DNA of 64,000 nt from an uncultured Bacteroidota bacterium (GCA_903877645.1 CAIRES010000080.1:1-64000), one strand, 5' to 3'. Shown: positions 863-55,780, counted from the first letter of the stretch. A program made the numbers and translations. Notes: generated by a model not told the origin, from the sequence alone.

Positions 863-3800
863 CAACATCACTGTCTGCAACAACAGGCACATCAGTAACT
901 GCAAGCCCTACATCAAACATTACATATACCGTTACCGGCACCGATGCATTAGGGTGCTCTAATACCGGAACAGTTACAGTAAATACCATCACGGCTCCTA
1001 CAGCTATTACAGGCACTCCTATAGTATGCGTACAAACCACATCTCCACTCGGCAATGGTGTATCGGGCGGCACATGGACCAGCAGCAATATCTCTTTAGC
1101 TACGGTAGGTATCACCGGAGGTTTACTTACCGGCTATGGCGCAGGCAATCCAACGATCACTTATACTTTAAGCAATGGCTGTTTCAAAACGGTTACTGCA
1201 ACTGTAAATCCTTTACCGGATTCTACGTTTACTATCACTCCAAATCATGTATGTCTCGGCAATTCTTCAACATTTGCCCCGGTAGTTTCGGGCGCAACTT
1301 TGTATAGCTGGAATTTTGCAGATGGCAATACTGGTACCGGCAATCCTTCAGTACATACTTATACTGTAGCTGCCATTTACACACCTACACTTACTGTAAC
1401 CAATTCATTCGGTTGTGTTTCTAATTTCAGGATGCAGACAACGATCAATGCATTACCGGTAGCTATTACCGGCACTGCATCAGTATGCGTTGGCCTTAAC
1501 ACTACATTGAGCGATGCTACAGGCACAGGCTCATGGACCAGCAGCGCACCGGGCACAGCAACAGTTGGCTCTGTTACGGGTGTGGTTAATGGCGTAGCAG
1601 CAGGCAATGCTAATATCACTTATACCACATCAGCGGGCTGTACCACTTTCCGCACAGTAACGGTAAATGCCTTACCCGGAGCAATCGGCAGCCTTGCAGG
1701 TATCTGCCCCGCTACATCTATTACGTTGACGGATGGTACCGCAGGCGGCACATGGACGAGCAGCAATACTGCTGTAGCTACCATTGTGGGCTCTACAGGC
1801 ACAGTGACCGGGGTATCTTCGGGATCCTCTACTATTACTTATACGTTACCAACAGGCTGTATCATCACTGCCCTTGAAACAGTGAACCCGAACCCGCCCG
1901 CGATCACCGGTGCAGGCGCTATCTGTTCTGGCTCGTCGTTAACGCTTGCGGACGGCATTGCCGGTGGCACGTGGAGCAGCGGCACCACCTCTGTGGCTAC
2001 AGTTGGCACATCTGGTGTAGTGCTGGGTGTATCAGGCGGTAGTTCTGTGATCAACTATACATTACCAACTACCTGTACAACAGCGGCAACGGTTACCGTA
2101 AATGCGTTGCCTAATGCGATAACCGGCACACCATTTGTTTGTACCGGCAGCACCACGGCATTGTCCACTACATCTACGGGCGGCACCTGGAGCAGCAGCA
2201 ATATACTACAAGGGTCTGTTAGCCCGTCAGGCACAGTGGCCGGCATATCAGCAGGCATTCCTAATATCAGCTATACATTGCCAACAGGTTGCTTTATCAA
2301 CATACCGGTAACTGTAAGTGCTACACCGGCAGCCATCACCGGCGCAAACAATGTTTGCGCAGGGTCTAATACTTCCCTTGCTAATGCTACTCCCGGCGGC
2401 ACCTGGAGCAGCTCCAATACTGCATTGGGCACTATCAGCACATCAGGTGTGGTAACCGGCATTTCTAATGGCACATTGAACATATCATATACTTCAGCAG
2501 CAGGCTGCGGTGTTGCATTGCCGTTCACTGTGAACATTACTCCTTCAGCAATTACCGGTACTGCTACTGTTTGTACAACAACTACCACAACACTCAACAG
2601 CACTCCTTCGGGCGGCGCATGGACCAGCAGCAATACTGCTCTGGCTACAGTTATTTCGGGTACAGGAGTAGTAACAGGCGTAGCAGCAGGCATACCGATC
2701 ATTGCTTATACACTTTCGGCGGGAAGCTGTAAAGCAACTATACCTGTTACTGTATTGGCTACCCCTGCTGCAATTGCAGGATCCAATAACGTATGTACCG
2801 GAACCAGCACCACACTTACCGATGCCACCGGCGGAGGCACATGGACCAGCGGAGCTACCGGCACTGCTACCATCGGGCTCACATCCGGCATTATGAATGG
2901 TGTAGCAGCAGGGACAACGGTCATTACGTATACCTCAGCAGCAGGTTGTAATAACTTCCTGAATGTGACAGTGAACACATCACCTTCAGCAATATCCGGC
3001 AGCGCAAATGTTTGCCTGGGTACCAGCAACTTATTAACTAATACATTATCCGGCGGTGCATGGACCAGCAGCAATACAGCCATTGCAACAGTTGGCACTA
3101 CAGGAAGCGTTTCTGGTATAACTACGGGCAATGCAACAATTACCTATACTGTAAATCCCGGGGCTTGTATCGCTATACTTCCAGTAACAGTGAACATGGC
3201 ACCAGCGTCCATAGGCGGATTAAACTTTGTATGTACCGGGTTGACGACCGTACTCACAGATGCCACAGCAAGTGGCTTATGGAGCAGCAGCACCACTGCA
3301 AATGCTACAGTAGGCTCAGGCACGGGTATCGTATCCGGCCTTACAGCAGGCACAACAACAACCATCAGCTACACATTAGCTAATGGCTGTAGCGCTATAT
3401 TGCCGATGAGTGTGAACCTGCAACCGGCAGCACTTACAGGTACTATGAATGTGTGTACAGGCCTTACAACAACACTGACCGAAACAACAACAGGCGGCAC
3501 ATGGAGCAGCAGCAATACTGCGCTGGATACCGTTAACACATCAGGTGTGGTAACCGGCATCTCAACAGGAACACCGACGATCAGCTATACGCTTTTAGGT
3601 TGCGCAGCCACACAGGTGGTTACCGTTAACCCCAGCCCGGCAGGCATTACAGGTTCTTCCGCAGTTTGCACTACCCAGACCATCACCCTTAGCGATGGCA
3701 CAACGGGCGGCTTATGGAGCAGCAGCATACCGGCTACAGGCAGCGTAGGAGCTACCACCGGTGTCGTTACCGGCATAGCAGCCGGCAATATCGTTATATC

Positions 3801-6800
3801 TTATACACTCGCTACAGGTTGTACTGCAACGAAAAACGTTACCGTAAATGCAATGCCTAATACGTATTCTATTAGTGCCGGCGGCAGCTATTGCTCCGGT
3901 GGCCCAGGAATAGATATTACCCTTTCAGGCTCAGATGCAGGCATCAGCTATCAATTGTACAATGGCACTACCGCATCAGGCAGCGCTGTAACAGGTGGCG
4001 GCAGCACTATAGACTTTGGGTTTAAAACTGCCGCAGGCACCTACACCGTAGTTGCTACTAATACGGTTACGGGTTGTACAAAAAATATGTCCGGCAGCTC
4101 CATAGTATCCATTAACCCGCTCCCTACTGCGTACTCTGTTAACGGCGGCGGTGGCTACTGTACAGGCGGCACAGGTGTGCACGTAGGCCTCAACAACTCT
4201 AATATCGGCATCAGTTATCAATTACTCAATGGCGGGTCTCCAACCGGCCTGCCATCAGTAGCAGGTACAGGTATTGCTCTTGATTTCGGGTTGATGACCA
4301 CGGCAGGCACGTATACTGTATTAGCGACTAATTCATCAACAAGCTGTACCAATACTATGTTGGGCAGCACAGTGGTGACCATCAACCCATTGCCTACTGC
4401 CATTACCGTAACAGGTGGCGGCAGCTATTGCATCGGCGGCACAGGGGTAGATATCGGACTGGCCACCCCTACTACTACCGGTGTCAACTACCAGTTGCTG
4501 AGAGGCACGACAGCAGTTGGCTTACCAATTGCAGGTTCAGGCTCTACTATTGACTTTGGCCTGATTACTACAGTTGGCACTTATAGTGTTTTTGCTACTA
4601 ATACAACAACGACCTGTTCCAATACTATGGCCAATACAGTTGTTGTCACTATCAATGCACTCCCTGTTTCTTACCTTGTATCGGGTGGCGGCGGCTATTG
4701 CCCCGGCACCGCAGGCAGCGTGGTTAACCTGAGCAACTCTACGCTTGGCGTTAACTATAACCTGATCCTGAGCGGAACAACTGTAGCTACAGTTGCCGGC
4801 AGCGGCAGCGGCATCAGTTTCCCCGCGCAAACTACGGCAGGCACCTATACCGTTAGCGGTACAAACGGCACATCATGCACCAATGCGATGACCGGCAGTG
4901 TCACTATTTCCGTTAATCCATTGCCAACCACATTCAGTGTTACAGGTGGTGGTGGTTATTGCACAGGCGGCACAGGTGTTCATTTACGCCTTAGCGGTTC
5001 TGCGCTCAGCACGAGCTATCAATTATATAACGGATCAACAACTACAGGCACCGCAGTTATTGGCTCAGGTGGCCCGCTTGATTTCGGCATATTCACAGCA
5101 GTAGGTACTTACACCGTATCCGCTACCAGCTCTGTTACATCCTGCAGCACCGGCATGGCCGGCAGCCAGGTAGTCACCATCAATCCTTTACCGGCCACAT
5201 TCAGCATGTCTGCCGGCGGCGGTTTCTGCGTTGGCGGATCAGGCATTGACGTACGGTTGCTTGGATCAGCTACAGGAGTCACCTACCAATTATACAGGGG
5301 TACTGTACCCGTAGGCATACCGGTTGGCGGCACAGGATCGGCTATCGACTATGGCAACCAAACTATCGGCGGCACTTATACCGTTACTGCTACCGTTACG
5401 GCCACAACCTGTAGCAGCGCAATGACCGGCAGTACCACAGTAACCGCTAACCCGTTACCGACAGCATTCACAGTTACGGGCGGCGGTAGCTATTGTGCTT
5501 CAGCCACAGGCGTGCATGTGTTCTTAAGCGGATCTTCAACCGGCGTTACTTACAGCCTGATCAATTCGAGCACTACCGTTGCAACTGCAACCGGAACAGG
5601 CACTACACTTGACTTCGGCTTACAAACTGCAACAGGCGGATATACTGTTACTGCACTAAGCACAGCGGGATGTTCGAATAACATGACCGGAAGCGTAAGC
5701 GTAAGCATCAACCCGCTGCCTACAGCCTATGTGGTAGGCGGTGGTGGCAGCTACTGTGCTACAGGCACAGGCAGCCACATTACGCTTGGCGGCTCTAATA
5801 CAGGCATCAATTACCAATTATATTATGGCACTACACCACTTGGCAGCGCTGTTGCAGGCGGAGCATCCACTATTGACTTCGGCGCCGTGACAGGTGTTGG
5901 GGTGTACAGCGTTTCTGCTACCAACCCTGCTACCGGCTGTACTAAGAATATGACCGGCACAGTATCAGTATCGATCAACGCATTACCAATCCCTTATCCG
6001 GTAACAGTGGGTAGCGGCGGCCTTTACTGCGCAGGTGGTGTTGGTGTACCGGTTGGTGTATCTATTACTACTTCAGGTACCAGCTACCAGCTATACCGCA
6101 ATGGCACGTCCATAGGCAGCTCTATCCTTAGTACAGGTGTTCCTATCAGCTTTGGCAACGAAACGCTTGCAGGCACCTACTCAGTTGTGGCTACAAGTGG
6201 CCCGGGCTGTACTAATAACATGGCAGGCACAGTAACTGTAAGCACTAATCCTTTACCCACTACCTATTCTATAGCCGGCGGCGGCGGTTATTGCCCAGGC
6301 AGCACCACAGGTGTTCATGTCACCCTGAGTGGCTCTAACACAGGCATCAATTACCTGTTATACAAGTCAGGCACAAGTGCAGGCACTTTCATCGGGTCAG
6401 GTTCCACCATCGACTTTGGCGGCATCACTGCTACCGGCACTTATACTGCCATAGCGATGAACCCCGTTACTTCCTGCACAGTAAATATGCTCAGCAGCGT
6501 GACTGTATCGACCAATATTCTCCCGACTGCATATACCATGACAGGTGGCGGCTCTTATTGCATTGGCAGCACAGGAGTACCTGTGGGATTGAGCAATGCC
6601 CAGGGTGGCGTGAACTACCAGCTCTACAATGGCACCACACCTATTGGCGGCCTGTTCCCCGGCACTTCCGGTACACCGATCAACTTTGGTATGGAAACCG
6701 CAGGATCTTATTCGGTGATCGCATCTGATGCCACTACATCCTGTACGCAGGTGATGACGCTGACCATAGCCGTTACTGCGACTTCTCTGCCAACTCCATT

Positions 6801-9800
6801 TAATGTTACAGGTGGTGGCAACTATTGCGCAGGCAGTGGTGGTTCGGTGATTGGCCTCGACGGTTCCCTTGGCGGCATCTCTTACCAGCTTTATGTGAGT
6901 GGCACACCAACAGGCTTCGCTGTTCCGGGCGGTGGCGGTGCTATCTCCTTTGGCGCACAAACAACTGCAGGCACTTATACTGTAATGGCTACCGGCGCTT
7001 GCTCAGGCGCTATGGCAGGCAGTGTGAACGTGGGCATCAACCCTGTACCTGCTGATTATCCGGTATCCGGCGGTGGCAATTACTGCGCTGGCGGCACAGG
7101 TGTGCACGTAGGCCTCGGAGGCTCACAATCGGGCATTAAATATCAATTATATAACACAGGAGCTCCCGTTGGCGGCCTGGTGAGCGGCACAGGTACAGCA
7201 CTCGACTTCGGACTGCAAACAGCAGCCGGTTCTTACACAGTTGTGGCGACAAACCTTTCCACTACATGTGCTGATACAACAACAGGCGCAGGCGCTACGG
7301 TCGGCATCAATACGCCCCCTACAGCTTATCCATTGTCAGGCGGCAGCAGTTATTGCGCAGGCGGTGCAGGCATAACACTTAACCTAAGCTTTACAGACCT
7401 AAGTACCGCTTACCAGGTTTACGATGGCACTACAGCCATTGGCACCCCGGTAACAGGCATTAGCGCGGCACTTTCATTCGGCCCCTACACAGCAGCAGGC
7501 ATCTATAGTGTTGTTGCCACAGATCTGACAACGACTTGTAAGAATACAATGATCGGTAACGACACTGTAACTATCAACCCGCTACCCACTACATACATCG
7601 TCAGTGGCGGTGGCACCTATTGTGACGGCGGCGCGGGTATGGATGTTATGTTGAGCAACTCCAATACAGGCATCAGTTACCAGCTATACAATGGCACTAC
7701 ACCTGCAACCGGCGCAGTGGCCGGCACAGGTTCAGCAATTGACTTTGGCGACCAGGCTGCAGCAGGTGTTTATACTGTTATCGCTACCAACAGCGCCACA
7801 ACCTGCCACAGCAATATGGTGAGCAGCGCGGTAGTAGGCATCAACCCCGCACCGGCATCACACGCCATCATCAACGGCGGGAGCTACTGCGCAGGCGCAA
7901 GCGGCGTGCATATCGGCCTTGCCGGATCTGATGCAGGCATCAGCTACCAGCTATTCAATGGCTCCGGCACTGCTGGCAGCCCGGTATTTGGTACCGGTGC
8001 ATCAATTGACTTTGGCTTATTCGCTGCTACCGGCACGTACAAAGTTGTAGCTACCAACCTTACTACTGGTTGCGCTAACCATATCAACGACAGCACGGTC
8101 GTTTCGACTACTCCATTACCTATAGCGTATGCAGTAAGCAGCAGTGCAAGCTCATTCTGCGCCGGTGGTGCAGGGGTGCATGTATTCCTGAGCAATGGTG
8201 ATGCTACTGTTAGTTACCAGTTATACAGGGGTACAGTAGCTGTGGGCCCTGCGGTCATTGGCAGCAGTTCCATTATTGACTTCGGCGCGCAAACCGTTGC
8301 CGGCACATATACAGTAATGGCAACTAACGGCACAAGTTGCAGCACACGCATGACCGGCAGTGCAGTGATCACCATCAACCCCGCCCCGGACGCGTTCAGC
8401 ATCACAGGTGGTGGCAGTTATTGCACAGGCGGCACAGGAGTGCATGTTGGCCTTGCAGGTTCATCAATAGGTACATCTTACCAGTTGAACTTAGCCAGTG
8501 TAGCAGTTGGCATCCCGGTTCCGGGCACAGGTTCGGCTCTTGATCTCGGTGTACAAACCGCATCAGGCGCCTACACCATCACAGCTACTAATACCACAGG
8601 TTGTGTGGCCACTATGACCGGCAGCGCATCTGTAGGCATCAATACATTACCTGCTGTGTTTACAGTAACCGGTGGTGGCAATTATTGCGCAGGCACTACT
8701 GGCATCCCATTAAGCCTCACAGGATCTTCAACCGGCACTAAGTACCGGCTTTACCTCGGCACTACAGCCGTTGGCAGCATGGTAACAGGCACCGGATCAG
8801 CGATCAGCTTAGGCACAGAAACTGCTGCCGGCACATATACTGCCGTGGCTGTTAATGACACCACAGGCTGCACCAGCACTATGACCAGCAGTGCAGTAGT
8901 GGGTATCAATCCATTACCCGGCACTTATGCAATTACCGGTGGCGGCAACTTCTGCCCGGGCAGCGCCGGCGTGCATATCGGGCTGAGTGGTTCGCATACA
9001 GGTATTACTTATCAGTTGTTCGATACTTCATCGGTTATCGGCGCAGCAATAACAGGTACAGGCCTTCCTATCGACTTTGGCTTGCTTACAGGCACAGGCC
9101 ATTATACTATCGTTGCCACCGATGCATCTACTATGTGTACGGCCAACATGACCGGCACAGCGATAGTATCACTCAACGTGCTTCCTTCAGTGTATACTGT
9201 TTCAGGCGGTGGCGGCTATTGCGCAGGCACAGCAGGCGTACATATCGGCCTGAGCAACTCAAGTATAGGAGTGGTGTACCAGTTGCACAACGGTACCAGC
9301 ACAGCAGGATCGCCACTGGCAGGCACCGGCAGCGCTATCGACTTCGGTACATTTACCACAGGTACTTATACTGCGGTTGCAACCAGCAGCAGCACATCAT
9401 GCACCAGCAATATGACAGGCACTGCTACAGTAAGTGTTAACCCAACAGTTACACCATCTGTAAGCATTGCGTCCGGAACAAGTGATACCGTATGCTCCGG
9501 CACACTGATCACCTTCACAGCCGTACCGGTAAATGGAGGTACAACTCCTGCTTACCAATGGACAATTAACGGTGTGTCTATATCAGCAGCAAGTTCTTAT
9601 GCTTACCTGCCTGCAAATGGCGATGTAGTGAGTGTAACACTTATCAGCAGCGCACTCTGTCCGTTCCCTGCTACAGCAAACAATGCTGTCGAAATGACGG
9701 TATTGCCGCAACTGATGCCTTCTGTAACAACAACTGTTGATCCCGGCACCACGGTTTGCCAGGGTACTGCAGTTACGTTCACTGCTGCTGTCACCAATGG

Positions 9801-10539
9801 TGGCACCACACCGGTCTATGTATGGAAGCTGAACAGCATAACTACTGCCAGCACTTCTGCCGCTTACACATTCACACCGGCTAACGGGGATGTAGTATAT
9901 TGCCAGGTGACCAGCAACTACCAGTGTGCACTTGTAAACACCGTGGCCAGTACGCATACTGCTATTGAAGTAGATATTCCTACTACTCCTATAGTGGCCA
10001 TCAGCGCCAACCCCGGCACTCATCTTGCTAATGGGCAGAATGTGGTATTTACGGCCAATGTGACCAACGGAGTGAGTGCTGTGAGTTACCAATGGAGTGT
10101 GAATGGTGCTGCTATAAACGGCGCAACAACACAGGTATACATCACTAATACCCTCGGCAACCTCGACAACGTAAGCTGCACGGTAACCACTACCGGTAGT
10201 TGCTCAGGCCTCGCCGGCAGTGCAAGTACCCAGGTATTTGTGAGTAATGTAGGTGTGCAGCAAGTGTCCACCGGTAATGATGCTATTATCCTCGTTCCTA
10301 ACCCGAATAAGGGCATCTTCACCCTGAAAGGCTCACTGGCAAATACTATGGAACAGGAAGTGACTATTGAGATCACCAATATGCTGGGCCAAGTCATCTA
10401 CAACGGCAAGGCTGCTGTGCATAACGGGGATATAGATGAGAAAATACAACTGGGCAATAACACAGCCAACGGTATGTATCTGCTCAACCTCCGCACAGCA
10501 TCAGGAAATAAAGTGTTCCATATGGTTGTGGAACAATAA
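862..10539 (+). CDS. Giant repeat adhesin with T9SS type A sorting domain, 5' truncated
   Basis: The frame is open from the junction to a TAA at 10537-10539, about 3,225 residues, and has no real start here; a TTG at 1300 is internal. Order of parts: the end of an Ig-like domain, one ~72-residue Ig-like unit (1000-1218), a PKD domain (1219-1458, with SWNFADG), eleven more units of the same Ig-like type, 21 units of an ~88-residue module, three ~89-residue Ig-like units, and a C-terminal tail (10246-10536) with VPNPNKGIF and NGMYLLNL, as in T9SS type A sorting domains. It should be exported by the Sec and type IX systems and fixed to the cell surface as an adhesin or filament. The signal peptide is lost with the 5' end. 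Long Thr/Ser/Gly-rich repeats make this stretch prone to misassembly. Confidence 0.88.
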   Translation, partial: ATSLSATTGTSVTASPTSNITYTVTGTDALGCSNTGTVTVNTITAPTAITGTPIVCVQTTSPLGNGVSGGTWTSSNISLATVGITGGLLTGYGAGNPTITYTLSNGCFKTVTATVNPLPDSTFTITPNHVCLGNSSTFAPVVSGATLYSWNFADGNTGTGNPSVHTYTVAAIYTPTLTVTNSFGCVSNFRMQTTINALPVAITGTASVCVGLNTTLSDATGTGSWTSSAPGTATVGSVTGVVNGVAAGNANITYTTSAGCTTFRTVTVNALPGAIGSLAGICPATSITLTDGTAGGTWTSSNTAVATIVGSTGTVTGVSSGSSTITYTLPTGCIITALETVNPNPPAITGAGAICSGSSLTLADGIAGGTWSSGTTSVATVGTSGVVLGVSGGSSVINYTLPTTCTTAATVTVNALPNAITGTPFVCTGSTTALSTTSTGGTWSSSNILQGSVSPSGTVAGISAGIPNISYTLPTGCFINIPVTVSATPAAITGANNVCAGSNTSLANATPGGTWSSSNTALGTISTSGVVTGISNGTLNISYTSAAGCGVALPFTVNITPSAITGTATVCTTTTTTLNSTPSGGAWTSSNTALATVISGTGVVTGVAAGIPIIAYTLSAGSCKATIPVTVLATPAAIAGSNNVCTGTSTTLTDATGGGTWTSGATGTATIGLTSGIMNGVAAGTTVITYTSAAGCNNFLNVTVNTSPSAISGSANVCLGTSNLLTNTLSGGAWTSSNTAIATVGTTGSVSGITTGNATITYTVNPGACIAILPVTVNMAPASIGGLNFVCTGLTTVLTDATASGLWSSSTTANATVGSGTGIVSGLTAGTTTTISYTLANGCSAILPMSVNLQPAALTGTMNVCTGLTTTLTETTTGGTWSSSNTALDTVNTSGVVTGISTGTPTISYTLLGCAATQVVTVNPSPAGITGSSAVCTTQTITLSDGTTGGLWSSSIPATGSVGATTGVVTGIAAGNIVISYTLATGCTATKNVTVNAMPNTYSISAGGSYCSGGPGIDITLSGSDAGISYQLYNGTTASGSAVTGGGSTIDFGFKTAAGTYTVVATNTVTGCTKNMSGSSIVSINPLPTAYSVNGGGGYCTGGTGVHVGLNNSNIGISYQLLNGGSPTGLPSVAGTGIALDFGLMTTAGTYTVLATNSSTSCTNTMLGSTVVTINPLPTAITVTGGGSYCIGGTGVDIGLATPTTTGVNYQLLRGTTAVGLPIAGSGSTIDFGLITTVGTYSVFATNTTTTCSNTMANTVVVTINALPVSYLVSGGGGYCPGTAGSVVNLSNSTLGVNYNLILSGTTVATVAGSGSGISFPAQTTAGTYTVSGTNGTSCTNAMTGSVTISVNPLPTTFSVTGGGGYCTGGTGVHLRLSGSALSTSYQLYNGSTTTGTAVIGSGGPLDFGIFTAVGTYTVSATSSVTSCSTGMAGSQVVTINPLPATFSMSAGGGFCVGGSGIDVRLLGSATGVTYQLYRGTVPVGIPVGGTGSAIDYGNQTIGGTYTVTATVTATTCSSAMTGSTTVTANPLPTAFTVTGGGSYCASATGVHVFLSGSSTGVTYSLINSSTTVATATGTGTTLDFGLQTATGGYTVTALSTAGCSNNMTGSVSVSINPLPTAYVVGGGGSYCATGTGSHITLGGSNTGINYQLYYGTTPLGSAVAGGASTIDFGAVTGVGVYSVSATNPATGCTKNMTGTVSVSINALPIPYPVTVGSGGLYCAGGVGVPVGVSITTSGTSYQLYRNGTSIGSSILSTGVPISFGNETLAGTYSVVATSGPGCTNNMAGTVTVSTNPLPTTYSIAGGGGYCPGSTTGVHVTLSGSNTGINYLLYKSGTSAGTFIGSGSTIDFGGITATGTYTAIAMNPVTSCTVNMLSSVTVSTNILPTAYTMTGGGSYCIGSTGVPVGLSNAQGGVNYQLYNGTTPIGGLFPGTSGTPINFGMETAGSYSVIASDATTSCTQVMTLTIAVTATSLPTPFNVTGGGNYCAGSGGSVIGLDGSLGGISYQLYVSGTPTGFAVPGGGGAISFGAQTTAGTYTVMATGACSGAMAGSVNVGINPVPADYPVSGGGNYCAGGTGVHVGLGGSQSGIKYQLYNTGAPVGGLVSGTGTALDFGLQTAAGSYTVVATNLSTTCADTTTGAGATVGINTPPTAYPLSGGSSYCAGGAGITLNLSFTDLSTAYQVYDGTTAIGTPVTGISAALSFGPYTAAGIYSVVATDLTTTCKNTMIGNDTVTINPLPTTYIVSGGGTYCDGGAGMDVMLSNSNTGISYQLYNGTTPATGAVAGTGSAIDFGDQAAAGVYTVIATNSATTCHSNMVSSAVVGINPAPASHAIINGGSYCAGASGVHIGLAGSDAGISYQLFNGSGTAGSPVFGTGASIDFGLFAATGTYKVVATNLTTGCANHINDSTVVSTTPLPIAYAVSSSASSFCAGGAGVHVFLSNGDATVSYQLYRGTVAVGPAVIGSSSIIDFGAQTVAGTYTVMATNGTSCSTRMTGSAVITINPAPDAFSITGGGSYCTGGTGVHVGLAGSSIGTSYQLNLASVAVGIPVPGTGSALDLGVQTASGAYTITATNTTGCVATMTGSASVGINTLPAVFTVTGGGNYCAGTTGIPLSLTGSSTGTKYRLYLGTTAVGSMVTGTGSAISLGTETAAGTYTAVAVNDTTGCTSTMTSSAVVGINPLPGTYAITGGGNFCPGSAGVHIGLSGSHTGITYQLFDTSSVIGAAITGTGLPIDFGLLTGTGHYTIVATDASTMCTANMTGTAIVSLNVLPSVYTVSGGGGYCAGTAGVHIGLSNSSIGVVYQLHNGTSTAGSPLAGTGSAIDFGTFTTGTYTAVATSSSTSCTSNMTGTATVSVNPTVTPSVSIASGTSDTVCSGTLITFTAVPVNGGTTPAYQWTINGVSISAASSYAYLPANGDVVSVTLISSALCPFPATANNAVEMTVLPQLMPSVTTTVDPGTTVCQGTAVTFTAAVTNGGTTPVYVWKLNSITTASTSAAYTFTPANGDVVYCQVTSNYQCALVNTVASTHTAIEVDIPTTPIVAISANPGTHLANGQNVVFTANVTNGVSAVSYQWSVNGAAINGATTQVYITNTLGNLDNVSCTVTTTGSCSGLAGSASTQVFVSNVGVQQVSTGNDAIILVPNPNKGIFTLKGSLANTMEQEVTIEITNMLGQVIYNGKAAVHNGDIDEKIQLGNNTANGMYLLNLRTASGNKVFHMVVEQ
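1459..3858 (+). repeat. Eleven tandem ~72-residue Ig-like modules
   Basis: Each unit reads roughly (A)ITG..xVC.G..T.L......GGTWSSSNTA.ATV....GVVTG...G...I.YTL..GC....VTVN..P. I count eleven in a row after the PKD domain, and a twelfth copy precedes it at 1000-1218. Most units keep one Cys near the start and one in the GC near the end, so each could be closed by its own disulphide. Units differ at many positions, so this is an old array, not a recent expansion. Confidence 0.85.
3859..9444 (+). repeat. Twenty-one tandem ~88-residue Gly/Cys modules
   Basis: Each unit begins with a form of Y.VTGGGSYCAGGTGVHV and continues GLSGS..GISYQLYNGTT, then G(S/T)AIDFG, AGTYTVVATN, a second Cys (TGC or TSC), NMTGS and V.INPLP. 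I count 21 starts with GGG.YC or a close variant; unit 17 is the most divergent there (SSSASSFC). The two conserved Cys per unit suggest one disulphide per module. The module type changes abruptly at 3859 from the shorter Ig-like units. I do not recognise the module as a named adhesin domain. Confidence 0.83.
9445..10245 (+). repeat. Three ~89-residue Ig-like modules before the T9SS tail
   Basis: Three units share a pattern of P.V.I....GT.VC.GT.VTFTA...NGG, then Y.W..NG, then ANGD.V.C..T. They look like the Ig/PKD-like spacers that often precede T9SS tails in Bacteroidota surface proteins. The third unit lacks the first Cys and reads HLANGQNVVFTA. Confidence 0.75.
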
Positions 10540-35997: not shown

Positions 35998-36241
35998 TTT
36001 GACAGCGGAGAAACAGAGCGAAGAGCGGAGGGAGCGGCCCGCCCAATCGTCCGGTAGAAAAGCACAGAATCTAAAGGGGAAAGTTTGGTTGAGTTATCTG
36101 TCCTGCTCAAGACAACCCCTACCCTAAAGGGGAAAGTTTGGTTGAGTTATCTGTCCTGCTCGAACCGGCGAGTCCTCGCTGAAGGAGCGAGAGATGTCGC
36201 CAGAAACACGGAATAGTAATGAGTACAGTAGATTATCAATA
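35998..36241. other. Repeat-bearing intergenic region
   Basis: Lies between gldE and the convergent synthetase gene. It holds a copy of the GCGGAGAAACAG element (36004-36033) and a pair of 38-bp direct repeats. No gene is seen. Confidence 0.6.
36071..36161. repeat. Two identical 38-bp direct repeats
   Basis: The unit CTAAAGGGGAAAGTTTGGTT plus GAGTTATCTGTCCTGCTC occurs at 36071-36108 and again at 36124-36161 with no mismatch, 15 bases apart. It resembles the dispersed CTAAAGGGGAA-type repeats common between Bacteroidota genes. Function unknown. Confidence 0.85.
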
Positions 36242-39200
36242 TTAAGCCGGCTTTACAGGACTACCACCCCAACTACTGTTGGATTGAAGGTTCTCCCCCT
36301 TCATGAGCAGTGAGAGTGGTTCTATGTTTACATTATTGCCTATTTCGCTGTCGTAAAGAATGATGGTGCGTGCGCCAATGCTGCAACGCTCACCGATCTT
36401 TACGGGGCCCACTTTCATTACCCGGTCTTCGAACAAGTGTGTCTGCGGGCCACAATCTTCATTGAGCGCTGAATCGTCGCCGATGTTGACCATATCATAC
36501 TCGGTGATGTCGGTAGTGTTCATCCATACGCGCCTGCCTGTTTTAACGCCCAGAAAGCGGAGCATGATGGAAACCCAGGGGGTACCCCTCATAAAATCGA
36601 GGAGAAAGGGCACAGACAGAGCTTCGTAGGTAGAGGTGATGCCTTCGCTACGCCACACCTTGAAATTCCACATTGGCTTTTGTTCCGGCTTATACTTACC
36701 TACCACCAGCCACTTTAGCGCAACAGTAACAAAGAATGTGGGCAGCCCCATATAGAACAAATAATAGAATGGGAACTCAAGAACGACCACCCACCATTTA
36801 TTATTGACCACCAGGTCATGACCGTATGCGATGAAGAAAATACTGCAAATTAGGATCACCGTTTCAGGGATGAGTATCCTGATGAACTCGACAATACTAC
36901 GGGCAAGCACTTTTCCGGCTGATGGTTTAGCTGTAAGCTCTGTGGCAAAAGCACGGCTGGCCTGCCGGCGAGGCAATGCGATGGCAGGAGAACCAAACCA
37001 ATCACGGGCACTACTTTGCTGCCCCAGTTGCTCTGCGGATGGCGGCGTAGACAACACCCCGATCAGCATACGATTGGGCAGTACATAGCCTTGGGGGATC
37101 AGTGCACTGTTGCCAACGAAGCTATTGTTACCAATAACAGTGTTGTCAAGTATCAATTGCTGACCACGCACATCGGATTCGCCGAGCGTAACGGCATCAG
37201 CCACAAAGGAGCCCTTGCCGATGGTGAGCAATGGATGCGTAACACTACTGGCGGTAGATATTTCGGTATTCTTGCCCACTTTGGCCCCAAGCGCACGGAA
37301 CAACAGGGATATATATACCGTGGCATAAATAGGATGCAGCACAATAAGTGATAAAGACATCAGCTGATCTGCGAACCACTTACGCACATAAAACCAACTA
37401 TAGATAGGATACTTGCCGGGCTTAATGCCCCACTGAAACAGCCTGGTAAGCACAACGGTAACCAATGTAAATACAATGATATAGCTCAGCGCTAATGAAG
37501 GGGTAACGATGAGATAACTAAAGTCGTAATCGCCAGTGGAGTTGTCGAGGTTATTGATGATGATGATGGTAGGCAATAACGGCAACAGCACTACAAACGG
37601 GAAGACCAAGAGGGAGACTGTAAAAATAAATGAGTACCTCTTGCGCTTACCATCGGATACGGGAAGTGGCTGTGGCATATCGGCCAGCGTCTTGGTTTCT
37701 TTGAGGACAGCAGGGCTGCCATACCATACTTCAAAACTTTTGATCGTTTTGCCTTCCTGCAAATAGCTAAGGTCCTGTAGTTCGCCCCATTCCTGTATGT
37801 GGGCACCACCGGCTATTACTGCACTACTTCCTATATAAGCGTGGTCGCCAAGCGTAACGCGGCGGAGTTTAAGCAGGCCATCCTCGACATAAGCATTGTT
37901 AATGACTGTTTGTGAGCTGATACTTACATCGCTACCTATTGTGACAAGATCTTCGGCACCGATAGTAAAGGCACTTAGCTGAGCATCTTTGGCCACTTTT
38001 ACACCCATACGGCGGAGGTAGCCATTGTATAAAGGAGTACCGTTCAGGAATTGTGCCGGCAACAGGCGTTGCAAAGTTTTCACAAACCACCACCTGAAGT
38101 AATAACTACCCCACAGCGGATAATCCCCTTCCTTCATCCTGCCGATCACCAGCCACTTCATACCGATAGTGAAGGCTGCGAATAAAGGAGGGATAAAGCA
38201 AAACATACACAGCGCCGTGGTGATGCCATAAGTGATATTCTTTGTATCCTCGGCAACATAATAATAACCGAGGTATGGAAAGAATATCTGCACGGCAAAA
38301 AGGCCATAGATAAAGAGTAATGAAAAAGTCTGAGCCAGCCAGCAGAGCATGAATCTTGACTTAGGCACAGGATTAAAAACACGAGTAGCCCTTGGTTCGG
38401 TTACGGGCTTGCTTTCCCAATGCTTGGTCAATTCGCTGAGTGGCCGGTGCAGGTAAATATCCTTTAAAGAAGCCTGCGGAATATTGGCCTCGCGCCTGCA
38501 ACGTGACACAAAGGCCGCAGCCAGCAGCGAGTGGCCACCGAGATCGGTAAAGAAATCGTTTTGCAGTTCTATATTCCTATTAGGGAAAAACTTACGGAGG
38601 GCTGCAATGAGCCTGTCTCCGAGTGGAGCATCGAGATCTATAACTTCATTGGTGATGGCCACAGCATTCTCCAGCAACATAGCCGGCACAGGCAACGCCT
38701 TCCTGTTTATCTTACCACTGGGCAGGCGGGGCATATCCGGCAACTGCATGATCACGCTCGGCACCATATAGGCAGGTAACACCTTGGCCAGTTCATCGCG
38801 AATGTGCTGCTGATTCATCTTCACAGGGTCGTCGCAAACAATGTAGCCGGCAAGGTGATCTTGCCCGTTGACATCCTTTTTCACGGCGACTGCTGCTGCT
38901 GTAACATCGGGCAGGTTGCTTAACTTAGTTTCTATCTCGCCAAGCTCAATACGATAACCCCGTAGTTTGACCTGGTCATCGAAACGACCATGAAAATCGA
39001 CCGTACCATCGGCATTGATGATAGCTGCATCTCCCGTTTTGTATATTACTGATCCGGGAAGATCGGCCAGCGCTGCAGGCTTTATTATAAATTTCTGGGC
39101 GGTAAGCTCGGGCAGGTTGATGTAGCCTTTGCATACACCGGCACCTGTAATGACGAGTTCCCCTTTCTCCCCTCTTGGTAAGATTTTTAGATGCTCATCT

Positions 39201-40204
39201 ACAATAGCCAGATTGTAATTGGGCAAAGGCGTACCAATAGTGATGGCATCACCGGGCTTTAGGGCAATGAGTGAAGATGTAACAGTGGTTTCGGTAGGTC
39301 CGTAGCTATTGTAGAAACGCCGCTCAGGAACTGACCAGCGAGCCAACACCTGGGTGGTACAGGCCTCACCACCTGCATTGACTATACGGAGCAATGGTAC
39401 ATCATCTTCCATTACCGCCAGCAGGCTGGGTACAGCATGTAACACGGTGATGCGATGCCGCCTCAGTACCACATCCAGCTCATCAATAGATTTTGCGGTA
39501 GCGGCATCGGCCACATAGAGTGTGGCCCCGGCGAAATAACTGATCCAAACCTCTTCGCACCACATATCGAATGATACCGAAAAGCCCTGGTATACTCTAT
39601 CATCGCTATTCACTTCCAACACCGAATTTTCGGCACGTACAAGGTGGCATATCTGTCGGTGTGCAATTGGAATCCCCTTTGGCTTACCCGTGCTGCCGGA
39701 TGTATACAGTACATAGGCATTATCGTCGGGGCGGGCACCGGGTGTGATGTATATTAATTCGTCAGTTTTTGGGGGCGGTACTACGGTAAAGATCGGGCAG
39801 GCAATATTCAACTTACCCTGGCTGATGCAGCCTTTAGCTCCTACTTCATTCATTACGGTCTCTACACGTTCAGCAGGCATCTCAAAATCGAGTGGCACAT
39901 AGGACGCCCCGGCTTTGACTATGCCCAAAACTGCCACATGCAGCTCGAGGCCACGAGGCCACCAAATACCTACGGGATCGCCTGGCTTAATACCGTTCTG
40001 ATAGAGGTGGTCGGCCATGGCATCACTCCAGCGGTCGAGTTCGGCATAAGTGAGCGATGTATCATTAAAAAAGAGGGCTGCTTTTGAAGCATGCACCTGA
40101 GCGGATGCACGAAAAATATCTGCAAGCGTTTCTTCACGTAAAAAATCGGGACGATGGGCTCCAGGTACTATACTTAGGGATATATGCTCGGCTTCGGGGG
40201 TCAC
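36242..40204 (-). CDS. Membrane NRPS-like poly-amino-acid synthetase (A-T-3x[2TM-C])
   Basis: A 1,320-residue protein with a GTG start. Adenylation domain at 1-~510: A3 YVLYTSGSTGKPKGIPIAH (~164-182), A4 FDMWCEEVW (~212, with the Asp that holds an amino group), A5 NSYGPTETT (~299), A7 YKTGD, A8 GRFDDQVKLRGYRIELGEIE (~406), A10 PSGKINRKAL. Carrier domain at ~530-590 with DLGGHSLL (phosphopantetheine Ser ~559). Then six membrane helices in three pairs (~618-650/660-690, ~857-886/897-925, ~1110-1132/1138-1168), each pair followed by a hexapeptide-repeat (left-handed beta-helix) C-type domain (~720-840, ~955-1080, ~1205-1320). No thioesterase. This is the layout and almost the length of epsilon-poly-L-lysine synthetase and of the NRPS terminal-domain family. 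It probably activates one amino acid and links it into a homopolymer at the membrane. No accessory gene is adjacent. Confidence 0.88.
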   Translation of the reverse strand: MTPEAEHISLSIVPGAHRPDFLREETLADIFRASAQVHASKAALFFNDTSLTYAELDRWSDAMADHLYQNGIKPGDPVGIWWPRGLELHVAVLGIVKAGASYVPLDFEMPAERVETVMNEVGAKGCISQGKLNIACPIFTVVPPPKTDELIYITPGARPDDNAYVLYTSGSTGKPKGIPIAHRQICHLVRAENSVLEVNSDDRVYQGFSVSFDMWCEEVWISYFAGATLYVADAATAKSIDELDVVLRRHRITVLHAVPSLLAVMEDDVPLLRIVNAGGEACTTQVLARWSVPERRFYNSYGPTETTVTSSLIALKPGDAITIGTPLPNYNLAIVDEHLKILPRGEKGELVITGAGVCKGYINLPELTAQKFIIKPAALADLPGSVIYKTGDAAIINADGTVDFHGRFDDQVKLRGYRIELGEIETKLSNLPDVTAAAVAVKKDVNGQDHLAGYIVCDDPVKMNQQHIRDELAKVLPAYMVPSVIMQLPDMPRLPSGKINRKALPVPAMLLENAVAITNEVIDLDAPLGDRLIAALRKFFPNRNIELQNDFFTDLGGHSLLAAAFVSRCRREANIPQASLKDIYLHRPLSELTKHWESKPVTEPRATRVFNPVPKSRFMLCWLAQTFSLLFIYGLFAVQIFFPYLGYYYVAEDTKNITYGITTALCMFCFIPPLFAAFTIGMKWLVIGRMKEGDYPLWGSYYFRWWFVKTLQRLLPAQFLNGTPLYNGYLRRMGVKVAKDAQLSAFTIGAEDLVTIGSDVSISSQTVINNAYVEDGLLKLRRVTLGDHAYIGSSAVIAGGAHIQEWGELQDLSYLQEGKTIKSFEVWYGSPAVLKETKTLADMPQPLPVSDGKRKRYSFIFTVSLLVFPFVVLLPLLPTIIIINNLDNSTGDYDFSYLIVTPSLALSYIIVFTLVTVVLTRLFQWGIKPGKYPIYSWFYVRKWFADQLMSLSLIVLHPIYATVYISLLFRALGAKVGKNTEISTASSVTHPLLTIGKGSFVADAVTLGESDVRGQQLILDNTVIGNNSFVGNSALIPQGYVLPNRMLIGVLSTPPSAEQLGQQSSARDWFGSPAIALPRRQASRAFATELTAKPSAGKVLARSIVEFIRILIPETVILICSIFFIAYGHDLVVNNKWWVVVLEFPFYYLFYMGLPTFFVTVALKWLVVGKYKPEQKPMWNFKVWRSEGITSTYEALSVPFLLDFMRGTPWVSIMLRFLGVKTGRRVWMNTTDITEYDMVNIGDDSALNEDCGPQTHLFEDRVMKVGPVKIGERCSIGARTIILYDSEIGNNVNIEPLSLLMKGENLQSNSSWGGSPVKPA

Positions 40205-52355: not shown

Positions 52356-54029
52356 CTATAAATGAAAATGATCAAGTACCGCCTGTGGCACCTGTAGCCC
52401 CATATCCTTCATCTTCTTAGCCTGTTCTTTGGCTTTATCGTCATGATCGGTATCGAGATAAAGAACCAATAGATTATTATTGCCAGTCGCATCGTCTTTT
52501 TCCACTTTCAGATAGCGCTCCAGGTATGCAATTGCTGCAGTATAATCTTTGCGCTCTATAGCTACCCTTGCAAGATAAAAATCGCATTTGTAATAACCCG
52601 TGATCTTTTGCTCAGCCAGTAAGTATGGCTCCGATGCCTGAACTGAATCTTTATTCTGTAAGTCGACAGCATAAATATAATTCACATAGCGCTCCTTCGG
52701 GTTGAGCGAAAATGCCTTGTGAAATAGTTGATTCGATTTTTCAGGGTCCGTAACCCGTGCAGCGAGCATCATATTTGCATACGATGAATGAGGAGCAGTT
52801 TCGGCGGCCTGGGTCCAGAAAGCAAGTGGGTCTTTAAAACTTTGCTGGTAGCTGAAATTCAGGCCCGCAAACAAGCACATCATACCGATGCCACCTGCCA
52901 GCAATTGCCTGTCGGTGAGTTTATTCTGAAACAACGATGTTTGTGACAATAGCAGCAAAACACCGATCATTGGTAAGTACAAACGATATTCGTAAGTCTG
53001 CTCACTTAATTCTCTTGGCACAATGAATACAGGAAAAAGAAAAAGAAAAAAAACAGAGGATCCAGCAATGATCATTTTATTATTCCGGTTCGCATTGAGA
53101 TACAAGAGCACCCCTAATACCAGGGCAGCTATGATACCAAAATAATATACTGTATCCTCCTGTAAGGGAAACACGCTAAGATTAAATGGAAAGAATATCT
53201 TACCGAGGTATTGTAGCGACAAAGGCAAACGATGTAGGAAATCACGCGGCATATTGGCCACAGAAACCGCTGCATGGGAAGACAATACCAGTGACCTGGC
53301 AGTGAACCATACTGCATAACAAGCTACCCATACAATATACTGAATGAGCATCGCCCTGCTCTGCCATTTTTCCTGCAACAGCACAACCAGCAAAACAAAT
53401 GCTACCGGAGCTGCAGCAATAGCTGTTTCTTTAGTAAACAAGGCGAGGAGCAGAAATAAAGCAGCCAATATGAGGTGTTTTACCCTTTGGGTGTTTACAT
53501 AATCAACAGACTTGATGAAAAATAAAATTACAAATATGGCCAAAATGGTTTCCACCCTGGCACATATCCACGCCACAGCCTCAGTAAGCACCGGATGCAC
53601 CGCAAATAAAGCCGCGAGTATAAAGCTATGCATTTCCTTAACCCCCAGCTTTACCAGCAGCTTAAAAAGCAACGTAACACAGAGTACATGCAGCAATATA
53701 TTAACAAGATGAAATAAGGCAATATTCTTACCATGATCAGCGAGCTGGTAATTCAATATCATAGCATCTGTAGCAATGGGGCGGTAATATTGATCGGCCT
53801 GTGTACCGAAGATAGTATGTTGAAACGATGCGAAGACATTGGAGATGTCTTCATTGATATTGTGAAAAGTGTTGATCGCAATGCCGTCATCCAGGTCGGT
53901 TTCCCCCATTGATATGGTGGGTATGTAGATCGCAAAAGCAATGATCGCCAACCACAATAGCGGATATTTCAGCGTGAATTTCTTCGGCAGTTGAATAGAT
54001 GAAACTGACTTGGCTGCAATCTTGCTCAA
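52356..54029 (-). CDS. TMTC-like GT-C membrane protein with TPR tail (copy 2)
   Basis: The 557-residue protein starts with TTG (MSKIAAKSVSS). The first loop has the acidic pair in MGETDLDDGIAINTFHN, then DQYYRPIATDAMILNYQLAD, FAVHPVLTEAVAWICARVET and FTKETAIAAAPVAFVLLV, as in TMTC-type protein O-mannosyltransferase-like proteins. About ten hydrophobic segments are followed by a C-terminal TPR-like region (YANMMLAARVTDPEKSNQLF; YLERYLKVEKDDATGNNNLL). It is a clear paralog of the gene just upstream (54077-55780), with the same plan and many shared phrases. Substrate unknown. Confidence 0.85.
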   Translation of the reverse strand: MSKIAAKSVSSIQLPKKFTLKYPLLWLAIIAFAIYIPTISMGETDLDDGIAINTFHNINEDISNVFASFQHTIFGTQADQYYRPIATDAMILNYQLADHGKNIALFHLVNILLHVLCVTLLFKLLVKLGVKEMHSFILAALFAVHPVLTEAVAWICARVETILAIFVILFFIKSVDYVNTQRVKHLILAALFLLLALFTKETAIAAAPVAFVLLVVLLQEKWQSRAMLIQYIVWVACYAVWFTARSLVLSSHAAVSVANMPRDFLHRLPLSLQYLGKIFFPFNLSVFPLQEDTVYYFGIIAALVLGVLLYLNANRNNKMIIAGSSVFFLFLFPVFIVPRELSEQTYEYRLYLPMIGVLLLLSQTSLFQNKLTDRQLLAGGIGMMCLFAGLNFSYQQSFKDPLAFWTQAAETAPHSSYANMMLAARVTDPEKSNQLFHKAFSLNPKERYVNYIYAVDLQNKDSVQASEPYLLAEQKITGYYKCDFYLARVAIERKDYTAAIAYLERYLKVEKDDATGNNNLLVLYLDTDHDDKAKEQAKKMKDMGLQVPQAVLDHFHL

Positions 54030-54076
54030 ACAGGTTGAATTATACTTAGCCGAAATTACAATGTATAATCGAGATA

Positions 54077-55780
54077 TTAAAGCCCCAATTTCTGCAAAAG
54101 TTGGGGAGGAACGTCCAACCCGGCTAGTTTCATTTTTTTTGCCTGGGCTGTTGCCATGCCAGGTTGTTGCGTATCGATATATAAAAGCAGGAGGTTGTTA
54201 TTGGCGATCTTATTTGTCGGATCTGTTTTCAGGTAATCCTGCAAATACTTAACAGCTCCGTTAAAATCTTTCTTCTCAATAGCTACCCTGGCGAGATAAA
54301 AATCACATTGATAATAATTGGAGATACGCTTTTCGGTAAGCAGGTATGGCTCTGATGCCAGTACCGAGTCCTTCTGCTGCAGCATTTCGCCCATGTAGTA
54401 GTTGAGGTACTTCTCTTTCGGATTCAACTGATATGCCCTGCGAAATAGCTCACAGGACCGTGCAAAGTCGTCCTTGTCCAAACGGGAAGCGAGCATCATG
54501 GTTGCATAAGCCGAGTGGGGGGATGTAGCCATAGCGTCTGTCCAGAAAGTAAGCGGGTCTTGAAAATTTTTCTGGTGTCGGTAATTGAGCACAGCCAGAA
54601 CGCCTGCTAATGCAAGGCCGCCAATAAGCACTTGCTTGTCAGTAAATTTGTTACTTAATAAAATAGTTTGGGGAAGGAGCAATAAGATGCCTACTATAGG
54701 CAAGTAGAGGCGATGCTCAAAAGATTGCTCATTCAGATTATTGGGAACGAACAATACCGGCAATAAGAACAACAGGAATACAGCAACACCACTAAATATA
54801 ACCTGTGTATTTTTTTGTTTCGCAAGAAAAATGGCAGCAGCAAGCAACAGCAGGGCAGCGATACCATAATAATAAACAGTATCCTGCTGAGTAGGGAATA
54901 CACTTAAATTGACCGGCAATATTACCTTACCAAGGTATTGCAGGATCAGTGGCAACCTGCCCAAAAAATCATGCGCTACCTGTGCCGGGAATATTTGCGT
55001 TTGGATGGTTGCAGTGGACCTTACTGCATACCATAATACAAAGCACCCTGCCCATACCGCATACTGTATGAGATTATTCTTATCGTTCCATTTTTTCTGC
55101 AGTACAAATACGAGCAACACAAATGCTACCGGCGCGGCGAATACGGCTGTTTCTTTAGTGAAGTATGCGGGTATCAGGGACAGGGCCGCATATACCAGAT
55201 GCTTTGCTTTTCCGCCATCAGCGTAGGTGATCGAAAAGATGAGAAAGGAGAACACAAATATTGCGAGCAGCAGGTCGTTTCTGCCAGGTATCCATGCTAC
55301 GGCTTGCGACAGTACAGGATGAACAGCAAATACCAGGCATAAAAGAAAAGCATGCAATTCTTTGATAGCCAGCTTGCGAAATAACTTATAAAGTAACAAA
55401 ACAGAGCCAAGGTGCAGCAATACATTAATGACATGATAGCTGACTATGTTTTGTCCGTGATCGCTGACCTGGTAATTGAGTATCATGGAGTCCATGAACA
55501 GAGGACGGTAATATGGGTCTTTCACTGCATCAAAGAGTCCCCGGTGAAACGATGCCACCAGGTTTTGCAGATCCTCGTTGTATTGATGAAAGTCGCGAAT
55601 GAAAATGGAATCATCGAGCTCCGTAAGGCCAAAAGAAAATGAAGTAAAATATACCACGAATACTGCCAGTGCCAGCCATAGCATAGGATAAGGCACATTG
55701 AATGCAACAGGCGCAGTTGTTGCTATAGGCCCTGCAATTGGGGATTTAGCTATGGGTTGTTTTAATCTATTCTTGCTCAC
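54077..55780 (-). CDS. TMTC-like GT-C membrane protein with TPR tail (copy 1)
   Basis: The 567-residue paralog of the next gene starts with GTG (MSKNRLKQP). It shares GLTELDDSIFIRDFHQYNED, DPYYRPLFMDSMILNYQVSD, FAVHPVLSQAVAWIPGRNDL and YFTKETAVFAAPVAFVLLVF with it, and its C-terminal TPRs (ATMMLASRLDKDDFARSCEL; YLQDYLKTDPTNKIANNNLL). The pair comes from a tandem duplication that has diverged well. Members are thought to be GT-C glycosyltransferases using lipid-linked sugars; here the acceptor is unknown. The two are 47 bases apart and probably form one operon. Confidence 0.85.
   Translation of the reverse strand: MSKNRLKQPIAKSPIAGPIATTAPVAFNVPYPMLWLALAVFVVYFTSFSFGLTELDDSIFIRDFHQYNEDLQNLVASFHRGLFDAVKDPYYRPLFMDSMILNYQVSDHGQNIVSYHVINVLLHLGSVLLLYKLFRKLAIKELHAFLLCLVFAVHPVLSQAVAWIPGRNDLLLAIFVFSFLIFSITYADGGKAKHLVYAALSLIPAYFTKETAVFAAPVAFVLLVFVLQKKWNDKNNLIQYAVWAGCFVLWYAVRSTATIQTQIFPAQVAHDFLGRLPLILQYLGKVILPVNLSVFPTQQDTVYYYGIAALLLLAAAIFLAKQKNTQVIFSGVAVFLLFLLPVLFVPNNLNEQSFEHRLYLPIVGILLLLPQTILLSNKFTDKQVLIGGLALAGVLAVLNYRHQKNFQDPLTFWTDAMATSPHSAYATMMLASRLDKDDFARSCELFRRAYQLNPKEKYLNYYMGEMLQQKDSVLASEPYLLTEKRISNYYQCDFYLARVAIEKKDFNGAVKYLQDYLKTDPTNKIANNNLLLLYIDTQQPGMATAQAKKMKLAGLDVPPQLLQKLGL

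What the first reader, a model, noticed from the sequence alone, without database searches (positions are those of the whole stretch)
36242..40204. Bacteroidota homologue-like form of a membrane poly-amino-acid synthetase
Seen: A domain with the Asp of the A4 motif, one carrier domain, six membrane helices in three pairs, and three tandem hexapeptide-repeat C-type domains, in 1,320 residues with no thioesterase or condensation domain. Known: this is the plan of epsilon-poly-L-lysine synthetase (Pls) of Streptomyces, where the tandem C domains join amino acids iteratively. Inference: this bacterium may make a short homopolymer of one amino acid (a diamino acid such as lysine is a candidate). 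The exact product is not predictable from sequence alone, and the gene stands by itself with no degrading enzyme or exporter beside it.
Basis: partly seen in the sequence, partly recalled or inferred. Interest (0 to 1): 0.75.

Follow-up and report, generated by a model that had tools for sequence, protein, structure and literature searches.

The report
Poly-ornithine-type synthetase in Chitinophagaceae-like bacterium
One bacterial gene encodes a membrane-bound enzyme that very probably strings ornithine (not lysine) into short positively charged chains; the enzyme family is known, but this branch in the Bacteroidota is untested and comes with a previously unremarked acetyltransferase partner.

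Summary
The minus-strand ORF 40204→36242 (1,320 aa) is a full-length Pls/PosA-family synthetase: TIGR02353 667 bits (cut-off 423), AA-adenylation 386 bits (cut-off 317), carrier serine, and three membrane-helix pairs each followed by a hexapeptide beta-helix (homologue-guided AlphaFold model, pLDDT 92.6). The family call holds; the substrate guess needs changing. The pocket reads DMEHNGSVTK against DMEHNGTVSK in A. baumannii PosA (delta-poly-L-ornithine synthetase, solved with ornithine) and DAESIGTVVK in Streptomyces Pls. The two differences are Ser/Thr swaps that also occur among PosA-like relatives, and the tree puts the Bacteroidota clade on the PosA side. L-ornithine is therefore the best prediction. 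The 'C domains' are not NRPS condensation domains but beta-helix acyltransferase-like modules. Across 98 relatives down to about 25% identity, Q1254/H1256 stay essentially invariant in the third module, suggesting one catalytic centre. The gene stands alone here, but relatives carry it beside a phosphopantetheinyl transferase and/or a GNAT acetyltransferase. That GNAT co-occurs with the synthetase in Chitinophagaceae (18 of 21 GNAT genomes against 43 of 296 overall) and is encoded elsewhere in this genome. New member of a known kind; product untested.

The parts
36242..40204 (-). Pls/PosA-family synthetase gene, 1,320 aa (A domain - carrier - six-helix/three-beta-helix polymerisation domain)
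38690..40135 (-). Adenylation domain, residues 24-505; closest solved relative is the PosA A-core 8G95/8G96
39278..39568 (-). Substrate pocket residues D213 M214 E217 H256 N276 G278 S300 V308 T309 (with K498 at 38711-38713): DMEHNGSVTK, ornithine type
   Evidence: PosA roles in PMC10522769
38405..38617 (-). Carrier (thiolation) domain, residues about 530-600, phosphopantetheine site S559
36254..38335 (-). TIGR02353 terminal polymerisation domain, residues 624-1317
38147..38362 (-). Membrane helix pair 1 (residues 615-686)
37694..37969 (-). First beta-helix (LbH) module, residues about 746-837
37436..37654 (-). Membrane helix pair 2 (residues 851-923)
36983..37276 (-). Second beta-helix module, residues about 977-1074, with invariant D1003 and N1032
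36701..36919 (-). Membrane helix pair 3 (residues 1096-1168)
36254..36550 (-). Third beta-helix module, residues about 1219-1317, with E1235 and the Q1254-T-H1256 motif
36437..36445 (-). Q1254-T1255-H1256, candidate catalytic motif, Q and H essentially invariant in 98 family members

Best explanation
The gene encodes a membrane-embedded, single-module NRPS-like homopolymer synthetase of the Pls/PosA (CHPA) family that most likely makes short delta-linked poly-L-ornithine. The A domain adenylates L-ornithine (alpha-amine on D213, side-chain amine on E217, S300 and T309, depth set by M214) and loads it as a thioester on the phosphopantetheine of S559. A three-fold pseudo-symmetric membrane domain, built from three beta-helix acyltransferase-like modules each preceded by two membrane helices, then joins residues by amide bonds between the carboxyl of one ornithine and the side-chain amine of another, with no thioesterase. 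Shown here: family membership, pocket residues, carrier Ser, fold model, conservation pattern, and co-occurring partner genes. Inferred: ornithine as substrate (about 0.8), delta-linked homopolymer as product (about 0.7), and a single catalytic centre around H1256 in the third module (about 0.5). An Sfp-type PPTase (C26) must prime the carrier. A GNAT acetyltransferase encoded elsewhere (C85) is probably a functional partner (for example acetylating the polymer or its end as self-protection or tailoring; the exact role is a guess).
For: TIGR02353 667 bits over the whole model, against 725 for A. baumannii PosA and 675 for a Streptomyces Pls. Full-length identity 38.1% to A. baumannii PosA over 1,310 columns and 31.9% to Pls over 1,266; A-core 44.7% versus 37.5%. 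Pocket DMEHNGSVTK versus PosA DMEHNGTVSK and Pls DAESIGTVVK; both Ser/Thr positions vary within PosA-like sequences, e.g. DMEHNGTVTK in Acinetobacter sp. WC-141, 97% identical to PosA over the pocket fragment. Tree: the Bacteroidota clade joins the PosA plus DLED clades with SH-aLRT 99, apart from Pls and DAB types. PosA was shown biochemically to make delta-poly-L-ornithine of 7-12 units from a stand-alone gene, and M218 was shown to restrict side-chain length (PMC10522769). PPTase next door in 10 distinct Bacteroidota loci and many proteobacterial ones; GNAT downstream in 7 Bacteroidota loci. GNAT and synthetase co-occur, odds ratio 60, p 2e-14 by genome and 5e-6 by genus. An arginase-like protein (207 bits, just under the cut-off of 227.6) could supply free ornithine.
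Against: No member of the Bacteroidota clade has been assayed, as far as the held papers show. 38% full-length identity leaves room for a different product. Pocket codes are degenerate in this family (the Bdellovibrionales homologue activated arginine), and PosA itself adenylates some lysine. The Rhizobium DLED-type A-core is as close to the window's as PosA's is (46.9% versus 44.7%), although its pocket differs. This genome's arginine route uses an N-acyl-ornithine carbamoyltransferase-like enzyme (279 bits, under the cut-off of 288), so free ornithine may not be a main-line intermediate. The conserved GNAT may mean the finished product is not a plain cationic polymer. Fisher tests ignore shared ancestry; relatedness is only partly handled by the genus count.
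Confidence: 0.75

Rival explanations
1. Same type of enzyme, but polymerising L-lysine (epsilon-poly-L-lysine).
For: Same family and plan; PosA adenylates lysine weakly (PMC10522769).
Against: Pocket position 2 is Met, which in PosA hinders substrates longer than ornithine (M218A raised lysine efficiency about ten-fold), whereas Pls has Ala; positions 4 and 5 are H and N as in PosA, not S and I as in Pls; the tree separates it from Pls; PosA gave no lysine polymer.
Confidence: 0.06
2. A homopolymer or short oligomer of another basic amino acid (arginine, 2,4-diaminobutyrate, beta-lysine or other).
For: The Bdellovibrionales homologue activates arginine modestly (PMC10522769); codes in the family are degenerate.
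Against: 2,4-DAB/DAP types carry Phe at position 2 (L124 DFECLSAVTK, beside DAB transaminase and aspartate kinase genes); the Bdellovibrionales code is DSECYGGVTK; no diamino-acid biosynthesis gene beside this gene.
Confidence: 0.08
3. The product is ornithine-based but not a free polymer: the membrane enzyme attaches or chains ornithine onto an acceptor (lipid, glycan or small molecule), or makes an acetyl-capped oligomer with the co-occurring GNAT.
For: The GNAT co-occurs with the synthetase across Chitinophagaceae; the polymerisation domain is acyltransferase-like; membrane location.
Against: PosA with the same plan and pocket makes free polymer in vitro with no acceptor added (PMC10522769).
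Confidence: 0.1
4. Chance or degenerate ORF, or a non-functional remnant.
For: None beyond an isolated position.
Against: 1,320-codon open frame; the window departs from 90%-consensus positions at only 2 places (an insertion residue and L to V), and keeps every residue conserved in at least 98% of 91 relatives; conserved in same-genus genomes at 74-81% identity.
Confidence: 0.01

Closest known systems
PosA, delta-poly-L-ornithine synthetase of Acinetobacter baumannii (PDB 8G95-8G98; PMC10522769)
   Same: Full-length domain order; D/M/E/H/N/G/-/V/-/K pocket; stand-alone gene; TIGR02353 domain.
   Different: 38% identity; two Ser/Thr swaps in the pocket; belongs to a separate Bacteroidota clade; co-occurs with a GNAT in its family.
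Pls, epsilon-poly-L-lysine synthetase of Streptomyces (PDB 7WEW for the A domain)
   Same: Domain plan and TIGR02353 domain.
   Different: 32% identity; pocket DAESIGTVVK (Ala at the length-setting position); in L120 the gene is followed by an M1 metallopeptidase, absent here.
Gamma-poly-DAB-type synthetases of Streptomyces (e.g. L124, beside DAB transaminase and aspartate kinase)
   Same: Domain plan.
   Different: Pocket DFECLSAVTK; operon with precursor genes.
LbH acyltransferases (galactoside/maltose O-acetyltransferases) and gamma-carbonic anhydrases
   Same: The third module aligns with GAT-type LbH sequences (E about 3e-9); all three modules have beta-helix strands in the model.
   Different: Three modules in one chain with membrane helices; no solved structure covers the assembly (best listed TM-score by query length 0.15).

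Membership tests
Pls/PosA (CHPA) synthetases, TIGR02353 | Terminal NRPS_term_dom over the curated cut-off | tested here: met
   667.4 bits versus 423.1, positions 2-695 of 695
Pls/PosA (CHPA) synthetases, TIGR02353 | N-terminal amino-acid adenylation domain with A4 Asp | tested here: met
   TIGR01733 385.6 bits versus 317.4; D213 aligned with PosA D217
Pls/PosA (CHPA) synthetases, TIGR02353 | Glu at pocket position 3 binding the side-chain amine | tested here: met
   E217; Glu at this position in every code found among 91 members
Pls/PosA (CHPA) synthetases, TIGR02353 | One carrier domain with phosphopantetheine Ser | tested here: met
   GGHS, S559 conserved in at least 98% of 91 members; Pfam hit marginal, 20.7 versus 20.8
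Pls/PosA (CHPA) synthetases, TIGR02353 | Six membrane helices in three pairs with three soluble segments | tested here: met
   Model pLDDT 92.6 and hydropathy
Pls/PosA (CHPA) synthetases, TIGR02353 | Homopolymer formation by isopeptide bonds | not testable with these tools
   Needs enzyme assay and LC-MS
PosA-type (ornithine) subgroup | Pocket D-M-E-H-N-G-[ST]-V-[ST]-K | tested here: met
   DMEHNGSVTK
PosA-type (ornithine) subgroup | Grouping with PosA to the exclusion of Pls and DAB types | tested here: met
   Bacteroidota clade groups with the PosA and DLED clades, SH-aLRT 99; caveat: the DLED sequences are sister to PosA and have another code; quick tree, midpoint root
Pls (lysine) subgroup | Pocket D-A-E-S-I-G-T-V-V-K | tested here: not met
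Canonical NRPS with condensation or thioesterase domain | Pfam Condensation or Thioesterase domain | tested here: not met
   One search lists only AMP-binding, AMP-binding_C, PP-binding and hexapeptide-type families

The most novel reading that the evidence does not exclude
A three-part Bacteroidota system (poly-ornithine synthetase, PPTase and GNAT acetyltransferase, linked in some genomes and scattered in others such as this one) makes an N-acetylated or acetyl-capped delta-poly-ornithine, an unreported product; and the 'three tandem C domains' of the whole Pls/PosA family are one pseudo-trimeric LbH acyltransferase with a single active site (H1256) in the third module.
Probability: 0.2. Interest if true: 0.65.

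Novelty: new member of a known kind. Interest (0 to 1): 0.42.

Why it matters
In the literature that could be read here, delta-poly-L-ornithine synthesis has been shown for one Acinetobacter enzyme. This finding places a distinct, untested clade with the same pocket in Chitinophagaceae, Sphingobacteriaceae and Weeksellaceae, several members being cultured (Chitinophaga eiseniae, C. polysaccharea, Pedobacter steynii). It also gives two concrete handles on open questions: which residues catalyse bond formation in the polymerisation domain (Q1254/H1256 in module three), and whether a co-occurring GNAT modifies the polymer or protects the producer.

Tried and rejected
Lysine as substrate: rejected as lead on pocket and tree. 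Viral origin: a scan of viral contigs found no relative. A conserved operon at this locus: none; the neighbours (TrmH-like rRNA methyltransferase, CBS/hemolysin-type membrane protein, Ssb, MutY) are shared only with the nearest relatives. A PPTase remnant beside this gene: none found by tblastn in the window, although the same-genus relative L139 has a PPTase between the TrmH gene and the synthetase. A solved structure of the polymerisation domain: none by sequence or fold. Distances between conserved residues could not be measured because the model's coordinates are not exported.

Full report
Observation. The feature is a single open frame of 1,320 codons on the minus strand, 40204 to 36242. 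It matches TIGR02353, the Pls/PosA terminal domain, at 667 bits over the full model, and TIGR01733 at 386 bits. Pfam finds AMP-binding, AMP-binding_C, hexapeptide repeats and a marginal carrier hit, but no condensation or thioesterase domain. It is the only TIGR02353 match over the cut-off in this 3.84-Mb, 98%-complete genome, which holds just one other AA-adenylation match over the cut-off, a stand-alone A domain.

Relatives. In the same family, 43 of 296 sampled genomes carry the gene over the cut-off; in a wider sample of the phylum, 3 of 148 match strictly. The family itself is unnamed in the genome tool; I infer Chitinophagaceae or a close neighbour because the nearest named relatives are Chitinophagaceae MAGs and Chitinophaga. 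One scan of named genomes returned full-length homologues in Acinetobacter, Pseudomonas, Burkholderiales, Verrucomicrobiota, Chitinophaga, Mucilaginibacter, Pedobacter and Chryseobacterium. Plasmid records gave an A. baumannii PosA (L119), a Streptomyces gene annotated pls followed by an M1 metallopeptidase (L120), and a DAB-type synthetase beside DAB transaminase and aspartate kinase (L124).

Substrate. Of solved A domains, PosA 8G95/8G96 is closest over the pocket region: 159 bits against 98 for Pls 7WEW. Over the whole A-core PosA scores 365 bits; the LgrA chains rank just above it only because two of their domains are summed, at 197 and 177 bits each. In a 91-member alignment the pocket reads DMEHNGSVTK; A. 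baumannii PosA reads DMEHNGTVSK, Pls DAESIGTVVK, and the DAB type DFECLSAVTK. In PosA, D217 and E221 bind the alpha and side-chain amines, T304 and S313 hydrogen-bond the delta-amine, and M218 restricts length (PMC10522769). All of these are kept here except that T304 becomes Ser and S313 becomes Thr, swaps that also occur among PosA-like sequences. The tree (quick search, midpoint root) puts a single Bacteroidota clade next to the PosA and DLED clades with SH-aLRT 99. The prediction is therefore L-ornithine, not lysine. It remains a prediction: the DLED clade shows that pockets change within this part of the tree.

Mechanism. The terminal domain was modelled from 55 homologues (pLDDT 92.6, pTM 0.91): three pairs of long helices, each followed by short helices and a run of short beta-helix strands. 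No solved structure covers it; parts match LbH acetyltransferases and gamma-carbonic anhydrases. The third module alone aligns with galactoside O-acetyltransferase-type sequences. Among 98 members down to about 25% identity, the near-invariant polar residues are Q625, R704, R970, D1003, N1032, E1187, T1208, E1235, Q1254 and H1256; most of the potentially catalytic ones lie in or just before the third module. LbH acetyltransferases use a His as general base on a thioester acyl donor (own knowledge), and H1256 falls near that place in the alignment, within a few residues of gap uncertainty. I infer that one of three pseudo-equivalent sites is catalytic, probably at the interface of modules two and three. 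The published AlphaFold study already proposed that the three segments form one domain (PMC10522769); the single-site idea is my inference.

Partners. Beside this gene there is no operon, as for posA in A. baumannii. In relatives, an Sfp-type PPTase (two representatives scored 59 and 60 bits with Pfam ACPS) lies next to the synthetase in ten distinct Bacteroidota loci, divergent in most, and directly downstream in many proteobacterial loci. A GNAT follows the synthetase in seven distinct Bacteroidota loci. Annotated GNAT plus PPTase pairs also follow it in Sphingomonas and Aureimonas. This genome has the homologous GNAT at C85:14374-14859, on another contig than the synthetase, and an Sfp-type PPTase at C26. 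Across the 296 family genomes, 18 of 21 with the GNAT (E below 1e-20) have the synthetase, against 25 of 275 without it: Fisher p 2e-14, odds ratio 60; at genus level p 5e-6. Within single genera the two often vary together: in g8 only G179 has both, and in g22 only G119 and G238. The GNAT's role is unknown; self-protection or polymer capping are guesses.

Substrate supply. The genome has an arginase-like protein (TIGR01229 207 bits, cut-off 228) and an N-acetylornithine-carbamoyltransferase-like protein (279 bits, cut-off 288), suggesting an N-acyl arginine route with free ornithine coming from arginine. This is a weak constraint, not a contradiction.

Novelty. The enzyme kind and its presence in many phyla are known, and NCBIfam already names the family. 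No paper in the held library was found that tests a Bacteroidota member; supplementary tables of PMC10522769 were not readable here and may list some. The new points are the ornithine assignment for this clade, the GNAT association, and the single-site proposal.

Noticed in passing
window 1300-10539 (+): 3,079-aa protein made of many repeats of about 80 aa of the form GGGSYCxGGTGVHVGLSGSxTGxxYQLY, ending in a C-terminal region that looks like a secretion/sorting domain; probably a large surface protein.
   Followed up: no
window 36072-36162: Two near-identical direct copies of about 37 bases (AAAGGGGAAAGTTTGGTTGAGTTATCTGTCCTGCTC) in the intergenic space downstream of the synthetase, between convergent genes.
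   Followed up: no
own genome C85:14374-14859 (in L164): GNAT acetyltransferase homologous to the one downstream of the synthetase in related genomes; lies between a biotin-carboxylase-like gene and a CCG-type Fe-S protein gene here.
   Followed up: yes
own genome C35:60872-62101 (L132): Stand-alone amino-acid adenylation domain followed by a hexapeptide-repeat acyltransferase-like gene and preceded by a short-chain dehydrogenase; looks like a surface-glycan decoration cluster.
   Followed up: no
L126 and L155 (Streptomyces sp. CdTB01, Pseudonocardia sp. plasmids): Pls/PosA terminal domains in proteins annotated at about 800 aa that are too short to carry an A domain; in Pseudonocardia a separate AMP-binding gene lies just upstream, suggesting a split synthetase.
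   Followed up: partly
window 52356-55780 (-): Two adjacent paralogous membrane proteins with repeat-rich C-terminal halves (glycosyltransferase/TPR-like).
   Followed up: no
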